Source: a bacterium (GTDB taxonomy: Bacteria; CG2-30-53-67; CG2-30-70-394). Taken from it: a DNA stretch of 31,961 nt. Position 1 is the first letter of the stretch. Every line of letters starts with the position of its first letter. A program made the translations under genes and the position numbers. A model generated the notes under the pieces. It saw only the letters and a program-made list of their open reading frames with translations. It made no database searches and was not told the DNA's origin. The DNA lies in assembly GCA_024278555.1 (NCBI GenBank), contig JAJRSX010000045.1, positions 1 to 31,961 of the forward strand, read 5' to 3'. Shown here piece by piece: positions 738 to 20,253 of the stretch.

Positions 738-749
738 GGCAGAGGAATA

Positions 750-780
750 CTATTAAAGATACAGGTGCAGTCTTTGATAG
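750..780. promoter_or_regulatory. Imperfect palindrome upstream of the Fic-like gene
   Basis: Two 10-base arms, CTATTAAAGA (750-759) and TCTTTGATAG (771-780), are inverted repeats matching at 9 of 10 positions with an 11-base spacer. They lie in the 101-base gap between mraY and the Fic-like gene, which is clearly more AT-rich than the surroundings. This could be an operator, possibly for the Fic-like protein itself, which retains a C-terminal helix-turn-helix-like region. No convincing -35/-10 pair or terminator T-run is visible, so the function is inferred only from symmetry and position. Confidence 0.35.
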
Positions 781-838
781 CCCCACCCCTTATTCAAGTG
801 TCGCTCCACAACGAACAGACAGATCGGAGCTACCCCCC

Positions 839-1528
839 ATGCAGCGCGGCCCCACCGGGAGCTACGAGACCTCCACCACCGCCGGGGAGGCGGTGCGCGC
901 CTTCGTGCCCCACCCCCTGCCGCCGTGGCCGCCCCTGGACCTCTCCCCGGACCACCAGCGGCTGTTGGAGCGGGCGACCCTCGCCCTGGGCCGGCTCGAC
1001 AGCATCACCCTGTTGCTGCCCGATCCCCACATCTTCCTCTATGGCTATGTCCGCCGTGAGGCGCTGCTCTCCTCCCAGATCGAGGGGACCCAGTCCTCCT
1101 TCTCGGACCTCCTCCTCTTCGAGCTGGAGGAGGTGCCCGGCGCCCCCCTCGATCGGGTGCGGCGTGAGGGGGACTGGGAGCAGTGGCTCGCCTTCTTCCT
1201 CACCGGAGTGGAGCAAACGGCGGTCGGCGCGGTGCAGACCGCGAGGCGTCTGGTGGAGCTGTTCGCGAAGGACGGGGAGCGCATCCACACCCTGGGGCGC
1301 GGCGCGGGCAGTGCCCTGCGCACCTTCCGCGCCCTGTGCGAGCGGCCGCTCCTCGCCGTCCGGGAGATCGAGCGGCGCACCGGCCTCTCGTACCCCACCG
1401 CCGCCAAGGCGGTGGCCGCCCCGGAGCGTCTCGGCATCGTCGCCGAGATCACCGGCCGTAGGCGCAACCGCATCTATGCCTACCGGCACCACCTGGACAT
1501 CCTGAGCGAGGGAGCGGAGCCCCTCTGA
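839..1528 (+). CDS. Fic-family protein lacking the catalytic Fic core (in-frame internal deletion)
   Basis: The 229-residue product begins like a Fic_N-type Fic protein (MQRGPTGSYETSTTAGE, then PDPHIFLYGYVRREALLSSQIEGTQSS in two adjoining stretches) and keeps the inhibitory-helix motif S78-S-Q-I-E82-G83. At residues 104-106 (bases 1148-1156) it jumps to the sequence that in full-length relatives follows the catalytic domain (RVRREGDWE), then continues to the usual C-terminal winged-helix-like region (LSYPTAAKAV). The Fic motif HPFxDGNGR and everything around it, about 150 residues, is absent, so AMP-transfer activity is not expected. The frame is otherwise intact, and LD at the join suggests recombination at short homology. 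The start at 839 is where relatives begin; an upstream extension would overlap mraY. It may be a decaying gene or a reduced regulator. The family assignment rests on my recall of full-length sequences. Confidence 0.82.
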   Translation: MQRGPTGSYETSTTAGEAVRAFVPHPLPPWPPLDLSPDHQRLLERATLALGRLDSITLLLPDPHIFLYGYVRREALLSSQIEGTQSSFSDLLLFELEEVPGAPLDRVRREGDWEQWLAFFLTGVEQTAVGAVQTARRLVELFAKDGERIHTLGRGAGSALRTFRALCERPLLAVREIERRTGLSYPTAAKAVAAPERLGIVAEITGRRRNRIYAYRHHLDILSEGAEPL

Positions 1529-1570
1529 GGCTCCGCCGCGCCCTCCGCACGACCCTCCCCCCCCGGACCC

Positions 1571-2937: not shown

Positions 2938-4026
2938 ATGCAAAACCTCGACCGCCCCCTCTTTTTTACCGTTGCCGCGCTACTGTTCTTCGGCCTCGCC
3001 TCCCTCTACTCCGCCTCGGTCACCACCGCGATCCGTCTGACCGGCAACCTGAACTACTTCTTCTTCCACCAGCTCATCTGGGCGCTGATCGGCATCGGGG
3101 TGGTGGCCCTCTTCGTCCAACTCAACGTCCACGGCTGGGAGAGCCTGGCGATCCCAATTTTTCTCCTCTGCCTGGTGCTCCTGGTGGCCATCCTCATCCC
3201 CGGGGTAGGGGTGGAGGTAAAGGGGGCGACCCGGTGGCTACAGGTGGGGCCCATCCGCTTCCAGCCGGCGGAGGCGGCCAAGGTGGCGATCGTGCTCCTG
3301 CTGGCGCGCACCCTGTCGCGCCACCCGGATCGGCTGCACAGCTTCCGCGACGGCCTCCTGCCGCAGCTCGGCCTGGTGGGGTTTGTCGTGGTCCTGATCC
3401 TCGCCGAGCGCGACCTCGGCAACGCGGTGGTGATCACCCTGGTCACCCTGGTGATGCTCTTCCTGGCCGGCGCCCGCCTGCGCCACCTCGGTGGAATCGC
3501 CCTCGGCTGCCTCCCCCTGGTGGCCCTGGCGATCGCGGTGGAGCCGTACCGGGTGCGCCGAATCCTCACCTTCCTCCACCCGTGGGACGACCCCACCGAC
3601 ACCGGCTGGCAGATCACCCAGTCGCTCATGGCGATCGGCAGCGGCGGCCTCTTCGGCACCGGCGTCGGCGCCGGCATCCAGAAGCGATACTTCCTCCCCG
3701 AGGCGCACACAGACTTCATCTTCGCGGTGGTGGGGGAGGAGGCGGGGCTCATCGGCACCCTCCTGCTGCTTGGCCTCTTCCTCTTTCTCGCCTGGCGCGG
3801 CGTGCGCATCGCCCGTCGCGCCCCCACCCCCTTCGCCCAGCTCCTCGCCGCCGGGGCCACCACCCTGATCACCCTCCAGGCGCTGCTCAACATGATGGTG
3901 TGCACCTCCATGGTGCCCAACAAGGGGCTGCCGCTCCCCTTCTTCAGCGCCGGCGGCTCCGCCCTGGTCGTCGACCTGGCGTGCGCCGGGCTGCTCCTCG
4001 CGGTCTCTCGCTGGGTCGCTGAGTGA
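2938..4026 (+). CDS. ftsW: Septal peptidoglycan polymerase FtsW (SEDS family)
   Basis: FtsW is the SEDS glycosyltransferase that polymerises lipid II at the division septum together with FtsI. The 362-residue protein has about ten hydrophobic segments and the SEDS signatures GATRWL, FQPAEAAK, ILAERDLGNAVV and, near the C-terminus, NKGLPLPFFSAGGSA (the family more often has FISYGGSS at the last motif). The ATG at 2938 gives the short cytoplasmic N-terminus MQNLDRPLFF typical of the family; an upstream in-frame start at 2818 would overlap murD and add a basic non-FtsW tail, so I reject it. The stop codon overlaps the murG start (GTGA), implying translational coupling. Confidence 0.95.
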   Translation: MQNLDRPLFFTVAALLFFGLASLYSASVTTAIRLTGNLNYFFFHQLIWALIGIGVVALFVQLNVHGWESLAIPIFLLCLVLLVAILIPGVGVEVKGATRWLQVGPIRFQPAEAAKVAIVLLLARTLSRHPDRLHSFRDGLLPQLGLVGFVVVLILAERDLGNAVVITLVTLVMLFLAGARLRHLGGIALGCLPLVALAIAVEPYRVRRILTFLHPWDDPTDTGWQITQSLMAIGSGGLFGTGVGAGIQKRYFLPEAHTDFIFAVVGEEAGLIGTLLLLGLFLFLAWRGVRIARRAPTPFAQLLAAGATTLITLQALLNMMVCTSMVPNKGLPLPFFSAGGSALVVDLACAGLLLAVSRWVAE

Positions 4027-5111
4027 CCCGGGTAGCGATCGCCGGGGGCGGCACCGGCGGCCACCTCTTTCCCGCCCTGGCGGTGGCCGAGGCCCTCGTC
4101 GAGGCGGGCCTCGGCCGCGCCGAGATCCTCTTCGTGGGCGGCGAGCAGGGGCTGGAGCAGCGCCTCGTCCCGCCCCGCGGCTTCCCCCTCGAATGCCTCC
4201 CCGCCCGCCCCTTCCAGGGCCAGGGGTGGCGGCTCCGCCTCGCCACCCTCATCGCCCTCCCAAGGGTGGTGGTCGCGGCACGCCGACGGCTGGCCCGCTT
4301 CGCCCCGGATTGCCTCCTCGGCGTCGGCGGCTACGCCTCGGTGCCCGCGGCCCTCGCCGCCCGCACCCTCGGCGTGCCCCTTATCCTCCAGGAGCAGAAC
4401 CGCTGGCCGGGGCTCGCCAACCGACTCCTCTCCCGCCTCGCCCGGCGGGTCTGTGTGGTCGACGACGGCGTCGCCCGCTTCTTCCCGGCCGGCCGCTGTA
4501 TCGCCACCGGCAACCCGGTCCCGGGGGAGCGGCGCCAGGGGGGGGCGCCGGAGGAGCTGGGGCTGGAGGCGGGCCGCTTCACCCTCCTGGTCATCGGCGG
4601 CAGCCGCGGCGCGGTGGCCCTGAACGAGGCGATGGCGGCGGCGGCGGCCCGCCTCGTTGACCGCGGCGCGGAGATCCAGATCCTCCACGCCTGCGGCGAC
4701 CACCCAACCGCCCCCCTGGAGCGGGCCTACGCGGACGCCGGGATCCACGCCCGGGTCGTGCCGTTCATCGACCGGATGGGCGCCGCCTACGGCCTCGCCG
4801 ACGCCATCATCGCCCGCGCCGGGGCCCTCACCTGCCAGGAGATCGCCAACGCCGGCCTCCCCTCGCTCCTCATCCCCTACCCCTACGCCACCAACGACCA
4901 CCAATGGCACAACGCCTTGCGCCTGAAGGAGGCGGGGGCGGCGGCGGTCGTCCGCCAGGAGGCGGCCACCGGCGACCTCATCGCCACCACCCTCCACGCC
5001 TGGCTCGACGACCCCGAGGAGCGCGCCCGCCAGGGGGCCGCCGCCCACAGCCTCGCCGCCCCGGACGCCGCCAAAAAGGTCGCCAAGGAGGTGCTCGCGG
5101 CGATCGGGTAA
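4023..5111 (+). CDS. murG: UDP-GlcNAc--MurNAc-(pentapeptide) pyrophosphoryl-undecaprenol GlcNAc transferase
   Basis: MurG is the membrane-associated GT-B enzyme that adds GlcNAc to lipid I to make lipid II. The 362-residue protein shows the N-terminal glycine-rich loop GGGTGGHLFPALAVAEAL, the segment GVGGYASVPAALAA, QEQNRWPGLANR, the second-domain loop GGSRGA, and the UDP-GlcNAc-binding stretch ARAGALTCQEIANAGLPSLL. It starts with GTG at 4023, overlapping the ftsW stop by four bases (GTGA). Its last 37 codons plus two short upstream stretches reappear about 1.9 kb downstream beyond the DUF4143 gene (6879-6991), so the 3' end has been partly duplicated. The copy at 4023 is full length and presumably the functional one. 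Confidence 0.97.
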   Translation: MTRVAIAGGGTGGHLFPALAVAEALVEAGLGRAEILFVGGEQGLEQRLVPPRGFPLECLPARPFQGQGWRLRLATLIALPRVVVAARRRLARFAPDCLLGVGGYASVPAALAARTLGVPLILQEQNRWPGLANRLLSRLARRVCVVDDGVARFFPAGRCIATGNPVPGERRQGGAPEELGLEAGRFTLLVIGGSRGAVALNEAMAAAAARLVDRGAEIQILHACGDHPTAPLERAYADAGIHARVVPFIDRMGAAYGLADAIIARAGALTCQEIANAGLPSLLIPYPYATNDHQWHNALRLKEAGAAAVVRQEAATGDLIATTLHAWLDDPEERARQGAAAHSLAAPDAAKKVAKEVLAAIG

Positions 5112-5478
5112 GGCGACCGGCTACGACGGGAAATTAGCCACGCTCCACGGAAGGACACGGAAAGGTGCGGCCTGCGGCCGTGATAATTCAGGAGCTAAGC
5201 CGAAAATGAACGCGAATGGGCGCAGAGGGTCTGGCGTCGCTGGCGGCCATCCTGCAGGTCCGGTCTCAGCCTGGAAGGCAACCGCTCAACGCAAGGACGC
5301 AAAGGCGAAGCGCGAGGAGCGGCGACGAGAGGCTCACGGACGTCGGGGCGTGGGTGGAGAGAGGAGACGCCAGCTTGGCCTTGAAGGAGGGCTCGCCACA
5401 ACCAGGCATTCCTCATGAAGGTGGCGTCGATGCAGCAAACGGACGGACCTTGAACTAGCGATTAGACGACATGCTAAC
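5112..5478. repeat. Non-coding junction DNA with fragments of two dispersed repeats
   Basis: No gene is credible here. Bases 5112-5165 duplicate the DNA after the murG fragment at 6992-7045, including a decayed copy of the CACGGAANN repeat arm (5136-5165, for example CCACGGAAGGACACGGAAAG). Bases 5199-5312 resemble a second repeat: GCGCAGAGG at about 5220, then GGCGTCGCTGGCGG, then CTCAACGCAAGGACGCAAAG at about 5285-5304. The same order of motifs occurs at 17089-17275 and, inverted, at about 7313-7395. From about 5400 onward the DNA becomes AT-richer and probably belongs with the DUF4143 gene. Confidence 0.6.
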
Positions 5479-5508
5479 TTGCAATTAGCCGTAGGGCGAA
5501 ATTACGAT
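5479..5508 (+). promoter_or_regulatory. Possible sigma70-type promoter of the DUF4143 ATPase gene
   Basis: TTGCAA (5479-5484) and TACGAT (5503-5508) are spaced by 18 bases in a locally AT-rich stretch directly upstream of the ATPase gene. The -10-like box ends only eight bases before the ATG at 5517, so a transcript from it would be leaderless or nearly so. No Shine-Dalgarno sequence is evident, which fits. This is a prediction from motif matches only. Confidence 0.35.
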
Positions 5509-5516
5509 CAGCCGCC

Positions 5517-6764
5517 ATGGGGCAGACTGAGCTCATTTCCCGGCTGTTGGCACCGCGTATCCGCGAGGCGCTCGCCGACACGCCGGTCGTGCTGATCCAT
5601 GGCCCGCGCCAGAGCGGCAAGACGACGCTGGCACGTCTGGTGGGTGAGCCACTGGGTTACCGGTACCTCTCTTTCGATGAGGACGCGGTCCGCATGGCCG
5701 CGGAACGCGATCCGGCCGGTTTTGTGGACGAGCTCCCCGAACGCACCATCTTGGATGAGGTCCAGCGCGTACCGGCACTCTTTACCGCCCTCAAGGTCGC
5801 TGTGGACCACCGCCGGATTCCGGGGCGGTTCATCCTGACCGGTTCGGCGAACGTGTTGCTGGTGCCGGCGCTTGCCGATTCTCTCGCAGGACGTATGGAG
5901 ATCCTCAGGCTCCACCCCATGGCCCAATGCGAGCTTGCCGGCGCGCCGCCCCGATTTGTGGACACCCTCTTCAACGGATGTTTTCGTACCCGGATCCGGG
6001 AGCGGCTGGGTGCGGACCTAGCCGAGCGGATCGTCGCCGGCGGCTATCCCGCAGCGCTCGCACGACAACAGACCGCGCGGCGCCGCGCCTGGTATCGCGC
6101 CTACTGCGAGAGCGAGATCCAGCGTGACGTCCGCGACCTCTCCCGCATACGCTCGCTGGACACGCTTCCGCGCCTGCTCTCGCTCGCCGCGAGTCATACC
6201 GCACAGCTCCTCAACGTAAGCGAGCTGGCAGGTCCGTTCCAGCTCACCCGGCAAACGATCCATGACCATGTCGCATTGCTCGAAGGCGTCTTCCTGGTGC
6301 AGCGCCTGCCTCCCTGGCACAGCAATCGACTCACGCGCCTGGTGAAGACGCCCAAGCTCCACATGGGAGACACCGGTGTGGCCTCTGCCCTCCTCGGCAT
6401 GGAAGGCGCCGCGCTGCGACGCGACCGCGGCGTCTTCGGCGCCATGCTCGAGACCTTCGTATTACAGGAGCTCCAGAGGCAGGCCAGCGGCCAGGATGAG
6501 CCGCTGGCGTTTTTCCACTTCCGAGACCGCGACCAGTATGAAGTCGACATTGTGGTCGAACGCGGGGCATATGCGCTGGCAGGCATCGAGGTGAAGGCGG
6601 CAGCGAGCGTCACGGAAAGAGACTTGCGCGGGCTCCGCAAGCTGCGTGACGCCGTGGGCGATCGTTTCGCTCACGGCGTGGTCCTCTACGATGGCACGGC
6701 GACGATCCCTTTCGGGGACCGGTTGCACGCCGTGCCCATTCGCACCCTGTGGGAGGCGCAGTAG
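5517..6764 (+). CDS. AAA-family ATPase with DUF4143 domain
   Basis: This 415-residue protein belongs to the widespread AAA_14/DUF4143 ATPases, whose cellular role is not established. The ATPase part has Walker A GPRQSGKTT at 29-37, Walker B-like ILDEVQ with D80 and E81, and the sensor-like segment ILTGSAN. A winged-helix-like segment (LNVSELAGPFQLTRQTIHDH) follows near 220-245. The C-terminal DUF4143 region has GDTGVASALLG, an E-rich helix (ETFVLQELQRQ), EVDIV (342-346) and IEVKA (357-361), a layout resembling PD-(D/E)xK nuclease folds. Base and codon use is visibly less GC-biased than in murG and murC. It interrupts the murG-murC junction and is followed by a duplicated murG fragment, indicating insertion by recombination or transfer. 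Confidence 0.9.
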   Translation: MGQTELISRLLAPRIREALADTPVVLIHGPRQSGKTTLARLVGEPLGYRYLSFDEDAVRMAAERDPAGFVDELPERTILDEVQRVPALFTALKVAVDHRRIPGRFILTGSANVLLVPALADSLAGRMEILRLHPMAQCELAGAPPRFVDTLFNGCFRTRIRERLGADLAERIVAGGYPAALARQQTARRRAWYRAYCESEIQRDVRDLSRIRSLDTLPRLLSLAASHTAQLLNVSELAGPFQLTRQTIHDHVALLEGVFLVQRLPPWHSNRLTRLVKTPKLHMGDTGVASALLGMEGAALRRDRGVFGAMLETFVLQELQRQASGQDEPLAFFHFRDRDQYEVDIVVERGAYALAGIEVKAAASVTERDLRGLRKLRDAVGDRFAHGVVLYDGTATIPFGDRLHAVPIRTLWEAQ

Positions 6765-6878
6765 CCAGTGGGTTGGCTGAATCCGTCGTCGGCCACCGAC
6801 GGCGCCGATCCCCGCCACTCCCCCTCTGCGGCTCAGCGTTCACCCCCCACCCCTCGTGAACGGACCCCGAGGCTCTTG

Positions 6879-6991
6879 GTATCCACGCCCGGGACGTCCC
6901 CTTCATCGACCGCATGGGCGCCGCCTACGGCCTCGCCGCCCAGGACACCGCCAAAAAGGTCGCTAAGGAGGTGCTCGCGGCGATCAGGTAA
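6879..6991 (+). pseudogene. murG 3'-end fragment, duplicated and internally deleted
   Basis: The 38-codon frame ending at TAA 6989-6991 matches MurG: GIHARDVPFIDRMGAAYGLA corresponds to murG bases 4741-4800 (55 of 60 bases identical), then AQDTAKKVAKEVLAAIR corresponds to murG bases from 5051. Identity continues past the stop through 7020 (84 of 90 bases over 5051-5140). Relative to murG, 258 bases (86 codons, in frame) are missing between two copies of GCCTCGCCG (4792-4800 and 5050-5058). No start codon or fold-forming length remains, so it is a relic. Bases 6765-6878, between the ATPase gene and this fragment, show neither a gene nor murG similarity. Confidence 0.9.
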
Positions 6992-7016
6992 GGCGACCGG
7001 CTACGACAGGACATTA

Positions 7017-7177
7017 GCCACGGAATCCACGGAAAGGCACGGAAGTAGGGGTTTCCCGTTGGGTTGAGCGGGCAACCCGGACCCCGTTGCTGCTCGAAGC
7101 ACGGCAGGCACCACCTCGTTTTCTTTCCCCCGCCGCCCGCTCTCGCCCCTTCCGTGCCCTTCCGTGGATTCCGTGGC
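7017..7177. repeat. Inverted-arm repeat element (CACGGAANN type)
   Basis: The left arm 7017-7045 and right arm 7149-7177 are 29-base inverted repeats matching at 28 positions, with a 103-base centre. Each arm has three 9-base units (CCACGGAAT, CCACGGAAA, GGCACGGAA). The left arm is in the same position after the murG fragment as the decayed arm at 5136-5165 is after intact murG, so the element was probably already next to murG before the duplication. It contains no open frame of note and no transposase, so it would be non-autonomous if mobile. Confidence 0.75.
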
Positions 7178-7544
7178 AAAAAAACGCCTTCCAGGCCGTT
7201 GCGCGCCGGTTGATGGCGCCGGTGACGTCAGACTGGCGGCGGCCACTATTCACGTCCACTCGCGCCCTATTTGCGGCTCGATCTATGGATTGGCCTTCCG
7301 GGCCGCATCCCCACCGCGTTGCACCACCGGTGACGCCTGCCCTCCGGCCCACCCCCCTTTGCGTCCTGGCCCCTTTGCGCCTTTGCGTTGAACCGCTTCC
7401 GGCCACCCCCCCCCGCCCCGGCGCGCCACCCACGACACCGTCCCGGCGGGGTCTCCGCCGCCACCCCCTTTGCCTCGGCTGCGCTTTGGGTTAAACCCGG
7501 TTACCGTCCCGCCTTCGCAGTTCCCCCCCTCTCCCCGAAGTTCC
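7178..7544. repeat. Non-coding DNA before murC with an inverted copy of the AACGCAAAGG repeat
   Basis: No gene is credible here. The segment about 7313-7395, read on the minus strand, runs TTCAACGCAAAGGCGCAAAG, then GGACGCAAAGGGGGG, then GGCGTCACCGGTGGT, the same motif order as 17166-17236. Further upstream, 7200-7260 contains minus-strand GACGTGAATAGTGG-like sequence that loosely resembles 5206-5220. GGGTTAAACCC at 7488-7498 is a short palindrome of unknown meaning. No convincing promoter for murC was found. Confidence 0.55.
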
Positions 7545-8948
7545 ATGTCCCTCTTCCACACGGCACACCACGTCCACTTAATGGGGATCGGCGGGGTCGG
7601 GATGAGCGGGATCGCCGAGATCCTGGTCACCCTCGGCCACCGGGTCTCCGGCTGCGATCTCAAAGAGAACGAGGCGGTGGCGCGGCTGCGCGCCCACGGC
7701 GCCACCGTGGCGATCGGCCACCACCCGGACCATGTGGCCGGCTGCGACGTGGTGGTGACCTCGTCGGCGATCCCCGCCGACCACCCGGAGATCGTCGCGG
7801 CGCGGGCGGCGCGGATCCCGGTGATCCCGCGGGCGGAGATGCTCGCCGAGCTGATGCGGCTGAAGTACGGGGTGGCGGTGGCCGGGGCGCACGGCAAGAC
7901 GACCACCACCTCGATCCTCGCCGCCCTCCTGGAGGGCGCCGGCCTCGACCCGACGGTGGTGGTGGGGGGCAAGGTGAAGGGGGGCAGCGGCGCCCGCCTC
8001 GGGGCCGGTGAGATATTGGTGGCGGAGGCGGACGAGTCGGACGGCTCCTTCCTCACCCTGTCGCCGGTGGTGGCGGTGGTCACCAACCTCGACGACGAGC
8101 ACCTCGACCACTACCACTCCTCGGCGGCGATCGACGACGCCTTCGTCGCCTTCTGCAACCGGGTCCCCTTCTTCGGGGCGTGCGTGGTCAACGTCGACGA
8201 CCCGCGCCTGGCGCGGCTCCTGCCGCGGTTGACGAAGCGGACGATCACCTACGGCACCTCGCCCCAGGCGGAGCTGCGGATCATCCCGTCGGAGGTACCG
8301 ATCGGCGACGGCCCCCAACCCTTCCAGCTCGTGGAGGAGGGACGCGACCTCGGCGCCTTCCACCTGTGGGCGGCGGGGCGCCACAACGTGAGCAACGCGG
8401 CGGCGGCGATCGCGGCGGCCCGCTTTCTCGGCGCCGAGGTGGAGGCCCTGCGCACCGCCCTGCCCACCTACACCGGGGTGGGGCGCCGCTTCGAGCTCCT
8501 CTTTGACGGCGGCGGGATCCGCCTGATCGACGACTACGGCCACCACCCGACGGAGATCGACGCCACCCTGGCCGCGGCGCGCGCCGCGTGGCCGGGGCGG
8601 ATCGTCGCCCTGGTGCAGCCGCACCGGTACTCGCGCCTGGCGGCGCTGACCGATTGCTTCGCCACCTCCCTGCTGGCCACCGATGTCTGTCTGATCACCC
8701 AGGTCTACGCCGCGGGCGAGCGACGGGGCAGCGGCCCGGACGGCGGCGACCTCACCGACCTCCTGCGCCGCCACGGCCACCGCCAGGCGAGCTTCCACCC
8801 GGACCTCGACGCCCTGGAGGAGGCGGCGCTGGAGGTGGTCCGCCCGGGCGATCTGCTGCTGACCCTCGGCGCCGGCGACATCACCCGCCTCGCTCACCGC
8901 CTCGCCGAGCGGCTGGCCGCGCGCCACGGCGCGGCGCAGACCCTCTGA
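7545..8948 (+). CDS. murC: UDP-N-acetylmuramate--L-alanine ligase
   Basis: MurC is the cytoplasmic ATP-dependent ligase that adds L-alanine to UDP-MurNAc. The 467-residue protein has the N-terminal loop HLMGIGGVGMSGIAEIL, SSAIPADHPE, the P-loop GAHGKTTTT at 114-122, EADESDGSFL, the nucleotide-binding segment NLDDEHLDHY, and the C-terminal hallmarks YTGVGRRFEL and DDYGHHPTEI. The ATG at 7545 is chosen because the family N-terminus (HxxHLMGIGG) follows within ten residues; in-frame starts further upstream would run into repeat DNA. It is separated from murG by the DUF4143 insertion and from murB by another repeat, although these genes adjoin in many relatives. Confidence 0.97.
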   Translation: MSLFHTAHHVHLMGIGGVGMSGIAEILVTLGHRVSGCDLKENEAVARLRAHGATVAIGHHPDHVAGCDVVVTSSAIPADHPEIVAARAARIPVIPRAEMLAELMRLKYGVAVAGAHGKTTTTSILAALLEGAGLDPTVVVGGKVKGGSGARLGAGEILVAEADESDGSFLTLSPVVAVVTNLDDEHLDHYHSSAAIDDAFVAFCNRVPFFGACVVNVDDPRLARLLPRLTKRTITYGTSPQAELRIIPSEVPIGDGPQPFQLVEEGRDLGAFHLWAAGRHNVSNAAAAIAAARFLGAEVEALRTALPTYTGVGRRFELLFDGGGIRLIDDYGHHPTEIDATLAAARAAWPGRIVALVQPHRYSRLAALTDCFATSLLATDVCLITQVYAAGERRGSGPDGGDLTDLLRRHGHRQASFHPDLDALEEAALEVVRPGDLLLTLGAGDITRLAHRLAERLAARHGAAQTL

Positions 8949-12040: not shown

Positions 12041-12236
12041 GCGTTTTCAAGTACGACATCTCACTCTTCTTCGATCGGGAAATGGACAATCCCTGGAAGG
12101 GGAAATTCACCACAGAGACACAGAGGGCACAGAGAACTACATCAGAAAACAGCATGATGTTTGCAGCGTCCGCGGTTGTCGTCCCTTCTTGACGATCCCT
12201 TGCAGTTCTCTGTGCCCTCTGTGTCTCCGTGGTGAA
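12041..12236. repeat. Inverted-arm repeat element (CACAGAGGN type), copy 1
   Basis: Arms 12106-12138 and 12204-12236 are 33-base inverted repeats matching at 32 positions around a 65-base centre; each arm is built of 9-base units (CCACAGAGA, CACAGAGGG, CACAGAGAA). Similarity to the second copy (31546-31832) starts upstream of the arm, at GCGTTTTCAAGTACG (12041), and continues into the centre (AACTACATCAGAAAAC). The repeat unit is thus larger than the hairpin. It lies in the 457-base gap between ftsQ and dapA, which otherwise holds only the arm at 11948 and the dapA promoter region. Confidence 0.8.
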
Positions 12237-12300
12237 ATGGCCTTCAAGGCCGGCACCCTGGTATCGAGTCGGGACGAGGTAGGCAGGCCAGCCCGGCCCG

Positions 12301-19579: not shown

Positions 19580-19600
19580 ACCATGGTCGTTGACCATGGT
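19580..19600. promoter_or_regulatory. Perfect palindromic operator of the toxin-antitoxin pair
   Basis: ACCATGGTC (19580-19588), spacer GTT, GACCATGGT (19592-19600) is a perfect 9-base inverted repeat, centred about 35 bases before the antitoxin ATG. A third ACCATGG covers the antitoxin start codon (19622-19628). Type II antitoxins of the Phd/YefM group usually bind such palindromes to repress their own operon, so this is the likely autoregulatory site. Confidence 0.65.
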
Positions 19601-19624
19601 ACGATTGCAATCCGGAGGCAGACC

Positions 19625-19867
19625 ATGGAGACCATCCCCATCTCGCGGTTCAAGGCGACCTGCCTGGCGGTCTTGGAGCGGGTGCGGCGCACCGGAGAGC
19701 CGATCCTCATCACCCGTCGCGGCCAGGCGGTGGCCGAGGTGGTGCCGCCGCACGCCCCCGTTGCGGGGAGCTCATGGCTGGGGCAGATGCGCGGGACGGG
19801 GCACATCGTCGGAGATGTGGTCGCACCGGCCGCCCCAGAGGGGGAGTGGGAGGCCCTCGGGGAGTGA
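19625..19867 (+). CDS. Type II antitoxin, Phd/YefM family
   Basis: An 80-residue antitoxin expected to bind and neutralise the PIN toxin encoded next and to repress the operon. The N-terminus METIPISRFKATCLAVLERV is the Phd/YefM DNA-binding fold, and GEPILITRRGQAVAEVVP is the family's conserved strand motif; the C-terminal part is the probable toxin-binding tail. ATG 19625 has a good Shine-Dalgarno sequence (GGAGG, 19614-19618), which favours it over the upstream in-frame GTG at 19583 that lies inside the palindrome. The stop overlaps the toxin start by GTGA. Confidence 0.9.
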   Translation: METIPISRFKATCLAVLERVRRTGEPILITRRGQAVAEVVPPHAPVAGSSWLGQMRGTGHIVGDVVAPAAPEGEWEALGE

Positions 19868-20253
19868 AACCGCTCCTTGACACTCACATCTTCCTCTGGG
19901 GGCTCCTGGAGCCGGCCCGCCTCCGCAGCGAGGTGGTCGCGGCACTGGAGGCGGCCGTCGAGGTGTGGCTGTCGCCGATCACCGTGTGGGAGAGCCTGCT
20001 GCTCGCGGAACGCGGCCGGGTGGTCCTGGAGCCCGACGTCCCTACCTGGATGCGCAAGGTTCTCCGTGCCACCGCTTTTCGGGAGGCCCCCCTCACCCAT
20101 GAGGTGGCAATCGCCGGCCGTGGGGTCGACCTTCCCCACCAGGATCCGGCGGACCGTTTCCTCGTCGCCACCGCCCTCACCTACGGGCTCACCCTGGTCA
20201 CCGCGGACACGCGGATCGTGGCGGCGCGGGCGTGTGACCTGCTCCCGGCGTGA
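19864..20253 (+). CDS. Type II toxin, PIN-domain ribonuclease (VapC-like)
   Basis: A 129-residue PIN-domain protein, typically a Mg-dependent RNase that arrests translation when free of antitoxin. The acidic active-site residues are visible: D6 in LLDTHIFLW, E43 in TVWESLLL, D97 in DPADRFLVATAL and D115 in LVTADTRI. The LLDTHxxLW start is typical of PIN toxins paired with Phd-like antitoxins. GTG 19864 overlaps the antitoxin stop by four bases. The gene converges on coaE with only 16 bases between the stops. Confidence 0.92.
   Translation: MKPLLDTHIFLWGLLEPARLRSEVVAALEAAVEVWLSPITVWESLLLAERGRVVLEPDVPTWMRKVLRATAFREAPLTHEVAIAGRGVDLPHQDPADRFLVATALTYGLTLVTADTRIVAARACDLLPA

What the first reader, a model, noticed from the sequence alone, without database searches (positions are those of the whole stretch)
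4741..7045. DUF4143 ATPase gene inserted at the murG-murC junction and bounded by a murG 3'-end duplication
The murG tail and its following about 50 bases occur before (5051-5165) and again after (6931-7045) the ATPase gene at about 93% identity, so the gene lies between long direct repeats. This looks like capture by duplicative recombination or integration of a circular molecule carrying a murG tail. DUF4143 ATPases are very common, yet how they spread is not known, and this locus may preserve one event.
Basis: partly seen in the sequence, partly recalled or inferred. Interest (0 to 1): 0.72.

Follow-up and report, generated by a model that had tools for sequence, protein, structure and literature searches.

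The report
ATPase gene inserted beside copied murG tail
A mobile ATPase gene sits between two cell-wall genes and has a copy of the upstream gene's tail on its far side; the same mark surrounds about one in eight such genes, and some toxin genes, in unrelated bacteria, which matches an insertion pattern so far described mainly for restriction enzymes.

Summary
The DUF4143 ATPase gene (5517-6764) lies between intact murG and a broken second murG tail (6878-7045), which copies 4740-5165 minus 258 bp. In six same-class genomes murG and murC are 67-252 bp apart, so the gap was invaded. In the only same-genus relative, murG is followed by type I restriction-modification (RM) genes, and murC is preceded by a Fic fragment, a related but not sister DUF4143 gene and hsdR, with no murG copy (the contigs do not join). 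The window keeps a 13-base hsdR-start match behind its ATPase, unique in its genome.

Direct repeats of 45 bp or more bracket 15 of 121 DUF4143 genes, against 2 of 269 random windows and 0 of 28 murG genes; several are neighbouring gene ends (cobB, thiG, ccmB). PIN (4/23) and HEPN (4/25) genes show the same, so it is not specific to DUF4143. This is the published pattern 'insertion with long target duplication' of RM genes, here found around DUF4143. Across anchors, copies differ mainly at third codon positions, suggesting that one tail was often imported; for murG this is undecided.

The parts
4023..5111 (+). murG, intact; its tail 4740-5111 is the duplicated stretch
   Evidence: ORF; Glyco_transf_28 N and C domains; 78% aa identity to the same-genus relative
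5112..5165 (.). bases after the murG stop that are also in the second copy; 5135-5165 is an arm of a dispersed repeat
5166..5516 (.). left flank of the insert, origin unknown; holds a small dispersed repeat at 5269-5307
   Evidence: no significant match to the relative's island; dispersed matches
5517..6764 (+). AAA_14-DUF4143 ATPase gene, 415 aa; Walker A GPRQSGKT at residue 29; C-terminal D...ExK motif of PD-(D/E)XK type (EVDIVVERGAYALAGIEVK)
6779..6791 (+). GAATCCGTCGTCG, identical to the hsdR start that follows the DUF4143 gene upstream of murC in the relative; possible fossil of a lost hsdR
   Evidence: 0 of 500 shuffles reach the match; only here and in the relative's two hsdR copies among fetched loci; once in the 3.06-Mb genome
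6878..6991 (+). displaced murG tail fragment (= 4740-4800 joined to 5058-5111), non-functional
   Evidence: (murG hit at 6824-6937 with a stop)
6992..7045 (.). second copy of the bases after the murG stop; 7014-7045 is the left end of a dispersed repeat
7014..7180 (.). MITE-like dispersed repeat with 32-bp inverted ends (94% complementary), tens of copies in the genome
7545..8948 (+). murC, intact; 86% aa identity to the same-genus relative

Best explanation
The murG-murC junction of this genus was invaded by mobile defence-type DNA (RM genes plus DUF4143 in one species, DUF4143 alone today in this one). In the window lineage the insertion left a long direct repeat: intact murG upstream of the cargo and a displaced murG 3' end downstream, later cut by a 258-bp deletion. 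[quoted passage not shown] The step I think most likely to create it (inferred, about 45%) is homology-anchored, single-crossover-like integration of a cargo piece joined to a related copy of the anchor gene's 3' end; the host gene keeps a working tail and the other tail is stranded beyond the cargo. Shown: the repeat, the empty site in relatives, the recurrence, the excess over controls, the coding-type divergence of copies pooled over anchors. Inferred: the crossover, circularity, the order of events, and that the window once held RM genes.
For: murG and murC adjacent with 67-252 bp gaps in G002-G007. Same-genus G001: murG then hsdM-DUF1016-hsdS; murC preceded by Fic fragment-DUF4143-hsdR on another contig, no murG copy found. 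hsdR-start 13-mer behind the window's ATPase. Brackets: first sample 8/54, second, independently drawn sample 10/64 new genes; matched flanks 15/121 DUF4143, 4/23 PIN, 4/25 HEPN, 0/28 murG, random windows 2/269; Fisher 9e-7 for DUF4143 against random. Gene-end repeats: cobB, thiG, ccmB, GT1, ABC permease, Pfam-checked; SDR and gamma-carbonic-anhydrase tails read from translation only. Pooled copy differences by codon position 18/7/49. Serial tails in arrays: cobB in G049, thiG in G050.
Against: Some brackets are dispersed repeats, not gene ends (L154, L170, L205), so the gene-end rate is lower than the bracket rate. Random windows had longer downstream flanks than the gene sets, which is conservative, but they are not matched for intergenic surroundings. 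For murG, 8 of 9 coding differences are in the broken copy (two-sided p 0.04), as expected from in-place duplication and decay. G001 has no murG copy. Later allele replacement of the intact gene could also give coding-type divergence. Codon-position counts pool sites within anchors and treat them as independent. No read data: MAG assembly error is unlikely (diverged copies) but not excluded.
Confidence: 0.68

Rival explanations
1. True target duplication: the cargo was joined into a staggered break or widely spaced nicks, and fill-in copied the murG tail; the second copy then decayed in place. No foreign tail is involved.
For: 8 of 9 coding changes lie in the broken copy with G001 as outgroup; this is how the RM literature describes the products, with long and variable target duplications.
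Against: Pooled over anchors, 49 of 74 differences are at third positions and 7 at second; against a rough decay expectation of 0.436 for third positions p is 7e-5. Serial tails at one anchor need repeated events at the same spot.
Confidence: 0.27
2. Tandem duplication: murG tail plus neighbouring island was duplicated by unequal exchange, and the second island copy was later deleted; the repeat then says nothing about how DUF4143 arrived.
For: Dispersed repeats at the ends could seed unequal exchange; the second copy already carries a 258-bp deletion.
Against: Needs an extra deletion removing just the second cargo, repeatedly across unrelated genomes; the association with mobile genes and not with murG or random windows is unexplained.
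Confidence: 0.15
3. Site-specific integration at gene 3' ends by an integrase acting in trans, like phage e14 in icd, the element supplying a replacement tail.
For: Intact gene upstream, displaced 3' end beyond the cargo; in G049 the cobB tail copies all include a stretch close to the end of the gene, with serial insertions.
Against: No integrase seen among the ORFs of the window insert; repeat lengths vary from 32 to about 430 bp; 5' ends (hsdR, tmRNA) are also copied.
Confidence: 0.1
4. Coincidence: intergenic junk rich in dispersed repeats, with no link between repeat and cargo.
For: The dispersed repeat at 7014-7180 has many copies; some brackets elsewhere are such repeats.
Against: The murG coding tail occurs only here in the genome; 17 of 128 DUF4143 genes against 2 of 269 random windows at E<1e-10.
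Confidence: 0.03

Closest known systems
Insertion with long target duplication of restriction-modification genes (Nobusato, Uchiyama, Ohashi and Kobayashi 2000, Gene 259:99; cited in PMC3031569, PMC1643837, PMC3154945, PMC3874152)
   Same: Cargo in a site that is empty in relatives, long variable direct repeat (order of 100 bp, PMC3874152) derived from the target, no transposase; RM genes occupy the same chromosomal gap in the same-genus relative
   Different: Cargo here is a lone DUF4143 ATPase; the comparison is between genera of a class, not strains; pooled copies differ like coding orthologues; repeat reaches ~430 bp; at other anchors copies form serial arrays
e14/icd-type integration into a gene 3' end (own knowledge; no paper read on it)
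   Same: Gene keeps a working tail, displaced original tail beyond the insert, silent differences between the tails
   Different: No integrase, 1.7-kb insert, no fixed core shown, 5' ends also used elsewhere
Accretion of islands at an attachment site, and integron cassette arrays (own knowledge)
   Same: Serial cargo modules separated by copies of one sequence (cobB tails in G049, thiG tails in G050)
   Different: Separator is the 3' end of a housekeeping gene; no systematic integrase search was made around the arrays
AAA_14-DUF4143 ATPases (Pfam PF13173 + PF13635)
   Same: Both domains above cut-off
   Different: None; ordinary member, 13 in this genome

Membership tests
Insertion with long target duplication | Site empty in related genomes | tested here: met
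   murG-murC 67-252 bp apart in G002-G007; no same-species comparison available
Insertion with long target duplication | Direct repeat of about 100 bp or more flanking the insert and derived from the target | tested here: met
Insertion with long target duplication | Cargo is an RM system | tested here: not met
   Only DUF4143 present; a 13-base hsdR-start match hints at lost RM genes
Insertion with long target duplication | Repeat copies identical at the time of insertion (host-derived) | tested here: inconclusive
   murG: 5 of 9 differences at third positions, 8 of 9 changes in the broken copy; pooled anchors argue against
Site-specific element in a gene 3' end | Integrase gene in the insert | tested here: not met
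   Only one gene recognised in the 1.7-kb insert
Site-specific element in a gene 3' end | Short fixed core shared by all integrations | tested here: inconclusive
   cobB copies all overlap the last part of the gene; other anchors vary
DUF4143 ATPase family | AAA_14 and DUF4143 domains above curated cut-offs | tested here: met
DUF4143 ATPase family | Nuclease activity of the PD-(D/E)XK-like C-terminus | not testable with these tools
   motif only; no close solved structure

The most novel reading that the evidence does not exclude
Lone defence and toxin-antitoxin genes (DUF4143, PIN, HEPN, Panacea-type) move as 'tail cassettes': cargo joined to a piece of an anchor gene's 3' end, which recombines into the same anchor in related bacteria and can stack into arrays in which copies of the anchor tail separate the modules (cobB array in G049, thiG array in G050). 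The murG locus would be a single-cassette case.
Probability: 0.25. Interest if true: 0.8.

Novelty: new member of a known kind. Interest (0 to 1): 0.55.

Why it matters
DUF4143 genes are very common and their spread is almost undiscussed in the open-access library searched (one paper names DUF4143). A footprint left by roughly one in eight of them, shared with PIN and HEPN genes, gives a countable, testable signature of how lone defence-type genes enter chromosomes without a transposase, and extends a pattern described mainly for restriction enzymes.

Tried and rejected
Pure coincidence of dispersed repeats: rejected by the controls. DUF4143-specific mobility: rejected, PIN and HEPN genes show the same rate. 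Vertical descent of one DUF4143 gene in the gap: the tree places the window's gene outside a 96%-supported group that holds the relative's gene (quick method), so independent or replaced cargo is likelier. A murG copy upstream of murC in G001: not found. RM remnants in the window's left flank 5166-5516: none significant. Rfam: no RNA family in the window. Solved structures: only weak AAA-type hits. Papers on DUF4143 or COG1373: nothing found on its spread in titles and abstracts listed. Furuta 2010 (PMC2853133) and Nobusato 2000 could not be read and are cited through others. Structure prediction was not used, as it would not bear on the insertion question.

Full report
What is there. The window carries mraY, a Fic-like fragment, murD, ftsW, murG, a DUF4143 ATPase gene, murC, murB, ddl and ftsQ (mraY, murD, ftsW, murB, ddl and ftsQ named from their translations, not Pfam-checked). 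murG (4023-5111) and murC (7545-8948) are intact by Pfam. Between them lies one AAA_14-DUF4143 gene (5517-6764). The murG tail returns at 6878-7045: 6878-6938 matches 4740-4800 at 92%, and the sequence then continues as the murG end and the bases after its stop. The two stretches differ in offset by 258 bp, so the copy lost 86 codons between two occurrences of GCCTCGCCG.

The last bases of the repeat belong to a dispersed repeat: 7014-7180 has 32-bp inverted ends and, with its neighbour up to about 7355, gives 98 mostly partial matches in the genome. The murG coding tail itself occurs nowhere else in the genome.

Is it an insertion? In six same-class genomes murG and murC are adjacent with gaps of 67-252 bp (coordinates). 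In the one same-genus genome (G001, also found as MNYW01000061, Nitrospirae bacterium CG2_30_70_394), murG is followed directly by hsdM, a DUF1016-type gene and hsdS (names from translations), and murC is preceded, on another contig, by the end of a Fic-type gene, a DUF4143 gene (49% aa identity to ours) and hsdR. The two contigs do not overlap, so one continuous island is an inference. No murG copy was found upstream of murC there. The gap was therefore invaded in both species. The two DUF4143 genes are relatives but not sisters in a quick tree.

A fossil of the RM genes. Fourteen bases after the ATPase stop the window reads GAATCCGTCGTCG, the same 13 bases that open hsdR right after the DUF4143 gene in G001. 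No shuffle of 500 reached the match, though the best came close; the word, followed by NNC, occurs once in the 3.06-Mb genome, and among the loci fetched by then it was found only here and in the two hsdR copies of G001. This suggests that the window's insert is a reduced RM island, but 13 bases first noticed by eye is not proof. In G001 the DUF4143 gene is itself flanked by two copies of the hsdR 5' end (81 bp, 80%).

Is it general? In a first set of 54 DUF4143 loci, 8 were bracketed by a direct repeat of 45 bp or more with a gap of 0.9-4 kb. A second set drawn afterwards gave 11 of 65 genes, one of them the cobB locus again, so 10 of 64 new genes, with nearly the same criteria (the upstream edge tolerance was 200 instead of 60 bases). 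With equal 1.5-kb flanks and E<1e-10, 15 of 121 DUF4143 genes are bracketed, 4 of 23 PIN genes, 4 of 25 HEPN genes and 0 of 28 murG genes; of random windows in the same loci and in control stretches of the window's genome 2 of 269 pass the same E-value. Fisher's test for DUF4143 against random windows gives 9e-7, while DUF4143 does not differ from PIN or HEPN; against the 28 murG genes alone p is 0.07. The mark thus belongs to mobile defence- and toxin-type genes, not to DUF4143 alone.

What the repeats are. Several are the 3' end of a neighbouring gene: cobB/Sir2, thiG, ccmB and an ABC permease with the gene present beside them, and a glycosyltransferase tail (Pfam); an SDR tail and a gamma-carbonic-anhydrase tail were read from translations. 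In the SDR and glycosyltransferase cases both copies are fragments. 5' ends occur too: hsdR in G001, tmRNA in contig C112 and a Y1 transposase in C27. Other brackets are dispersed repeats and say nothing about gene ends.

Arrays. In G049 copies of the cobB end lie at 274404-274435, 275901-276086, 280372-280564 and 281848-281884 of contig C4, with the DUF4143 gene, two further genes and a Panacea-type antitoxin module between them. In G050 thiG is followed by a HEPN/nucleotidyltransferase pair, a thiG tail, the DUF4143 gene and another thiG tail; both tails share a 22-bp deletion.

How the copies differ. Over murG, cobB, SDR, GT, thiG and ccmB, 74 substitutions fall 18, 7 and 49 on codon positions 1, 2 and 3. 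That is the pattern of coding sequences that diverged in separate lineages; with a rough expectation of 0.436 for third positions if one copy decays freely, p is 7e-5 (the 0.436 is my estimate, and sites are pooled). It suggests that one tail was often imported with the cargo, or that the intact gene was later replaced by another allele. For murG alone there are nine coding differences, five at third positions, and G001 agrees with the intact copy at eight of them, which leans the other way. The mechanism at this locus is therefore open.

Known or new. RM systems are reported to insert with long and variable target duplications, of the order of 100 bp (PMC3874152, PMC3031569, PMC1643837, PMC3154945, all citing Nobusato 2000). 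The murG locus meets the empty-site and long-repeat features; the cargo differs. It is a new member of that kind, with the rate around DUF4143, PIN and HEPN genes and the serial arrays as the new observations.

Limits. Genomes are mostly draft assemblies without reads; other strains of the window's species were not available; bracket counts used BLAST thresholds and mechanical ORFs, not annotation; the bracket criteria were set after the window case was known, though the second set was drawn later. The gene-end subset was sorted by eye.

Noticed in passing
window 738-1570: A second insertion in the cell-wall gene cluster: a Fic-type gene (Fic_N only, Fic core not found by Pfam) between mraY and murD, where the same-genus relative has the two genes overlapping; no long target duplication found.
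   Followed up: partly
window 7014-7180 and 7149-7355: MITE-like dispersed repeat with 32-bp inverted ends and an adjoining dispersed repeat; 98 mostly partial matches in the genome.
   Followed up: partly
L258 2960-11885 (G049 contig C4): Array of cargo modules (DUF4143, two other genes, a Panacea-type antitoxin module) separated by copies of the cobB 3' end.
   Followed up: partly
L206 3055-6921 (G050 contig C54): thiG, then HEPN/nucleotidyltransferase pair, thiG tail, DUF4143, thiG tail; both displaced tails share a 22-bp deletion.
   Followed up: partly
L101 443-519 and 4181-4257 (window genome contig C112): Promoter region and first 20 bases of the tmRNA gene are repeated beyond a DUF4143 gene that lies just downstream of tmRNA.
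   Followed up: partly
L090 11829-11909 and 13301-13380 (G001 contig C126): DUF4143 gene of a type I RM locus lies between two copies of the hsdR 5' end, 80% identical.
   Followed up: partly
window 12100-12270: Inverted pair of the widespread CCACAGAGACACAGAGG repeat; similar repeats were seen around DUF4143 genes in G003 and G006.
   Followed up: no
window 19583-20253: Phd/YefM antitoxin and PIN toxin gene pair.
   Followed up: no
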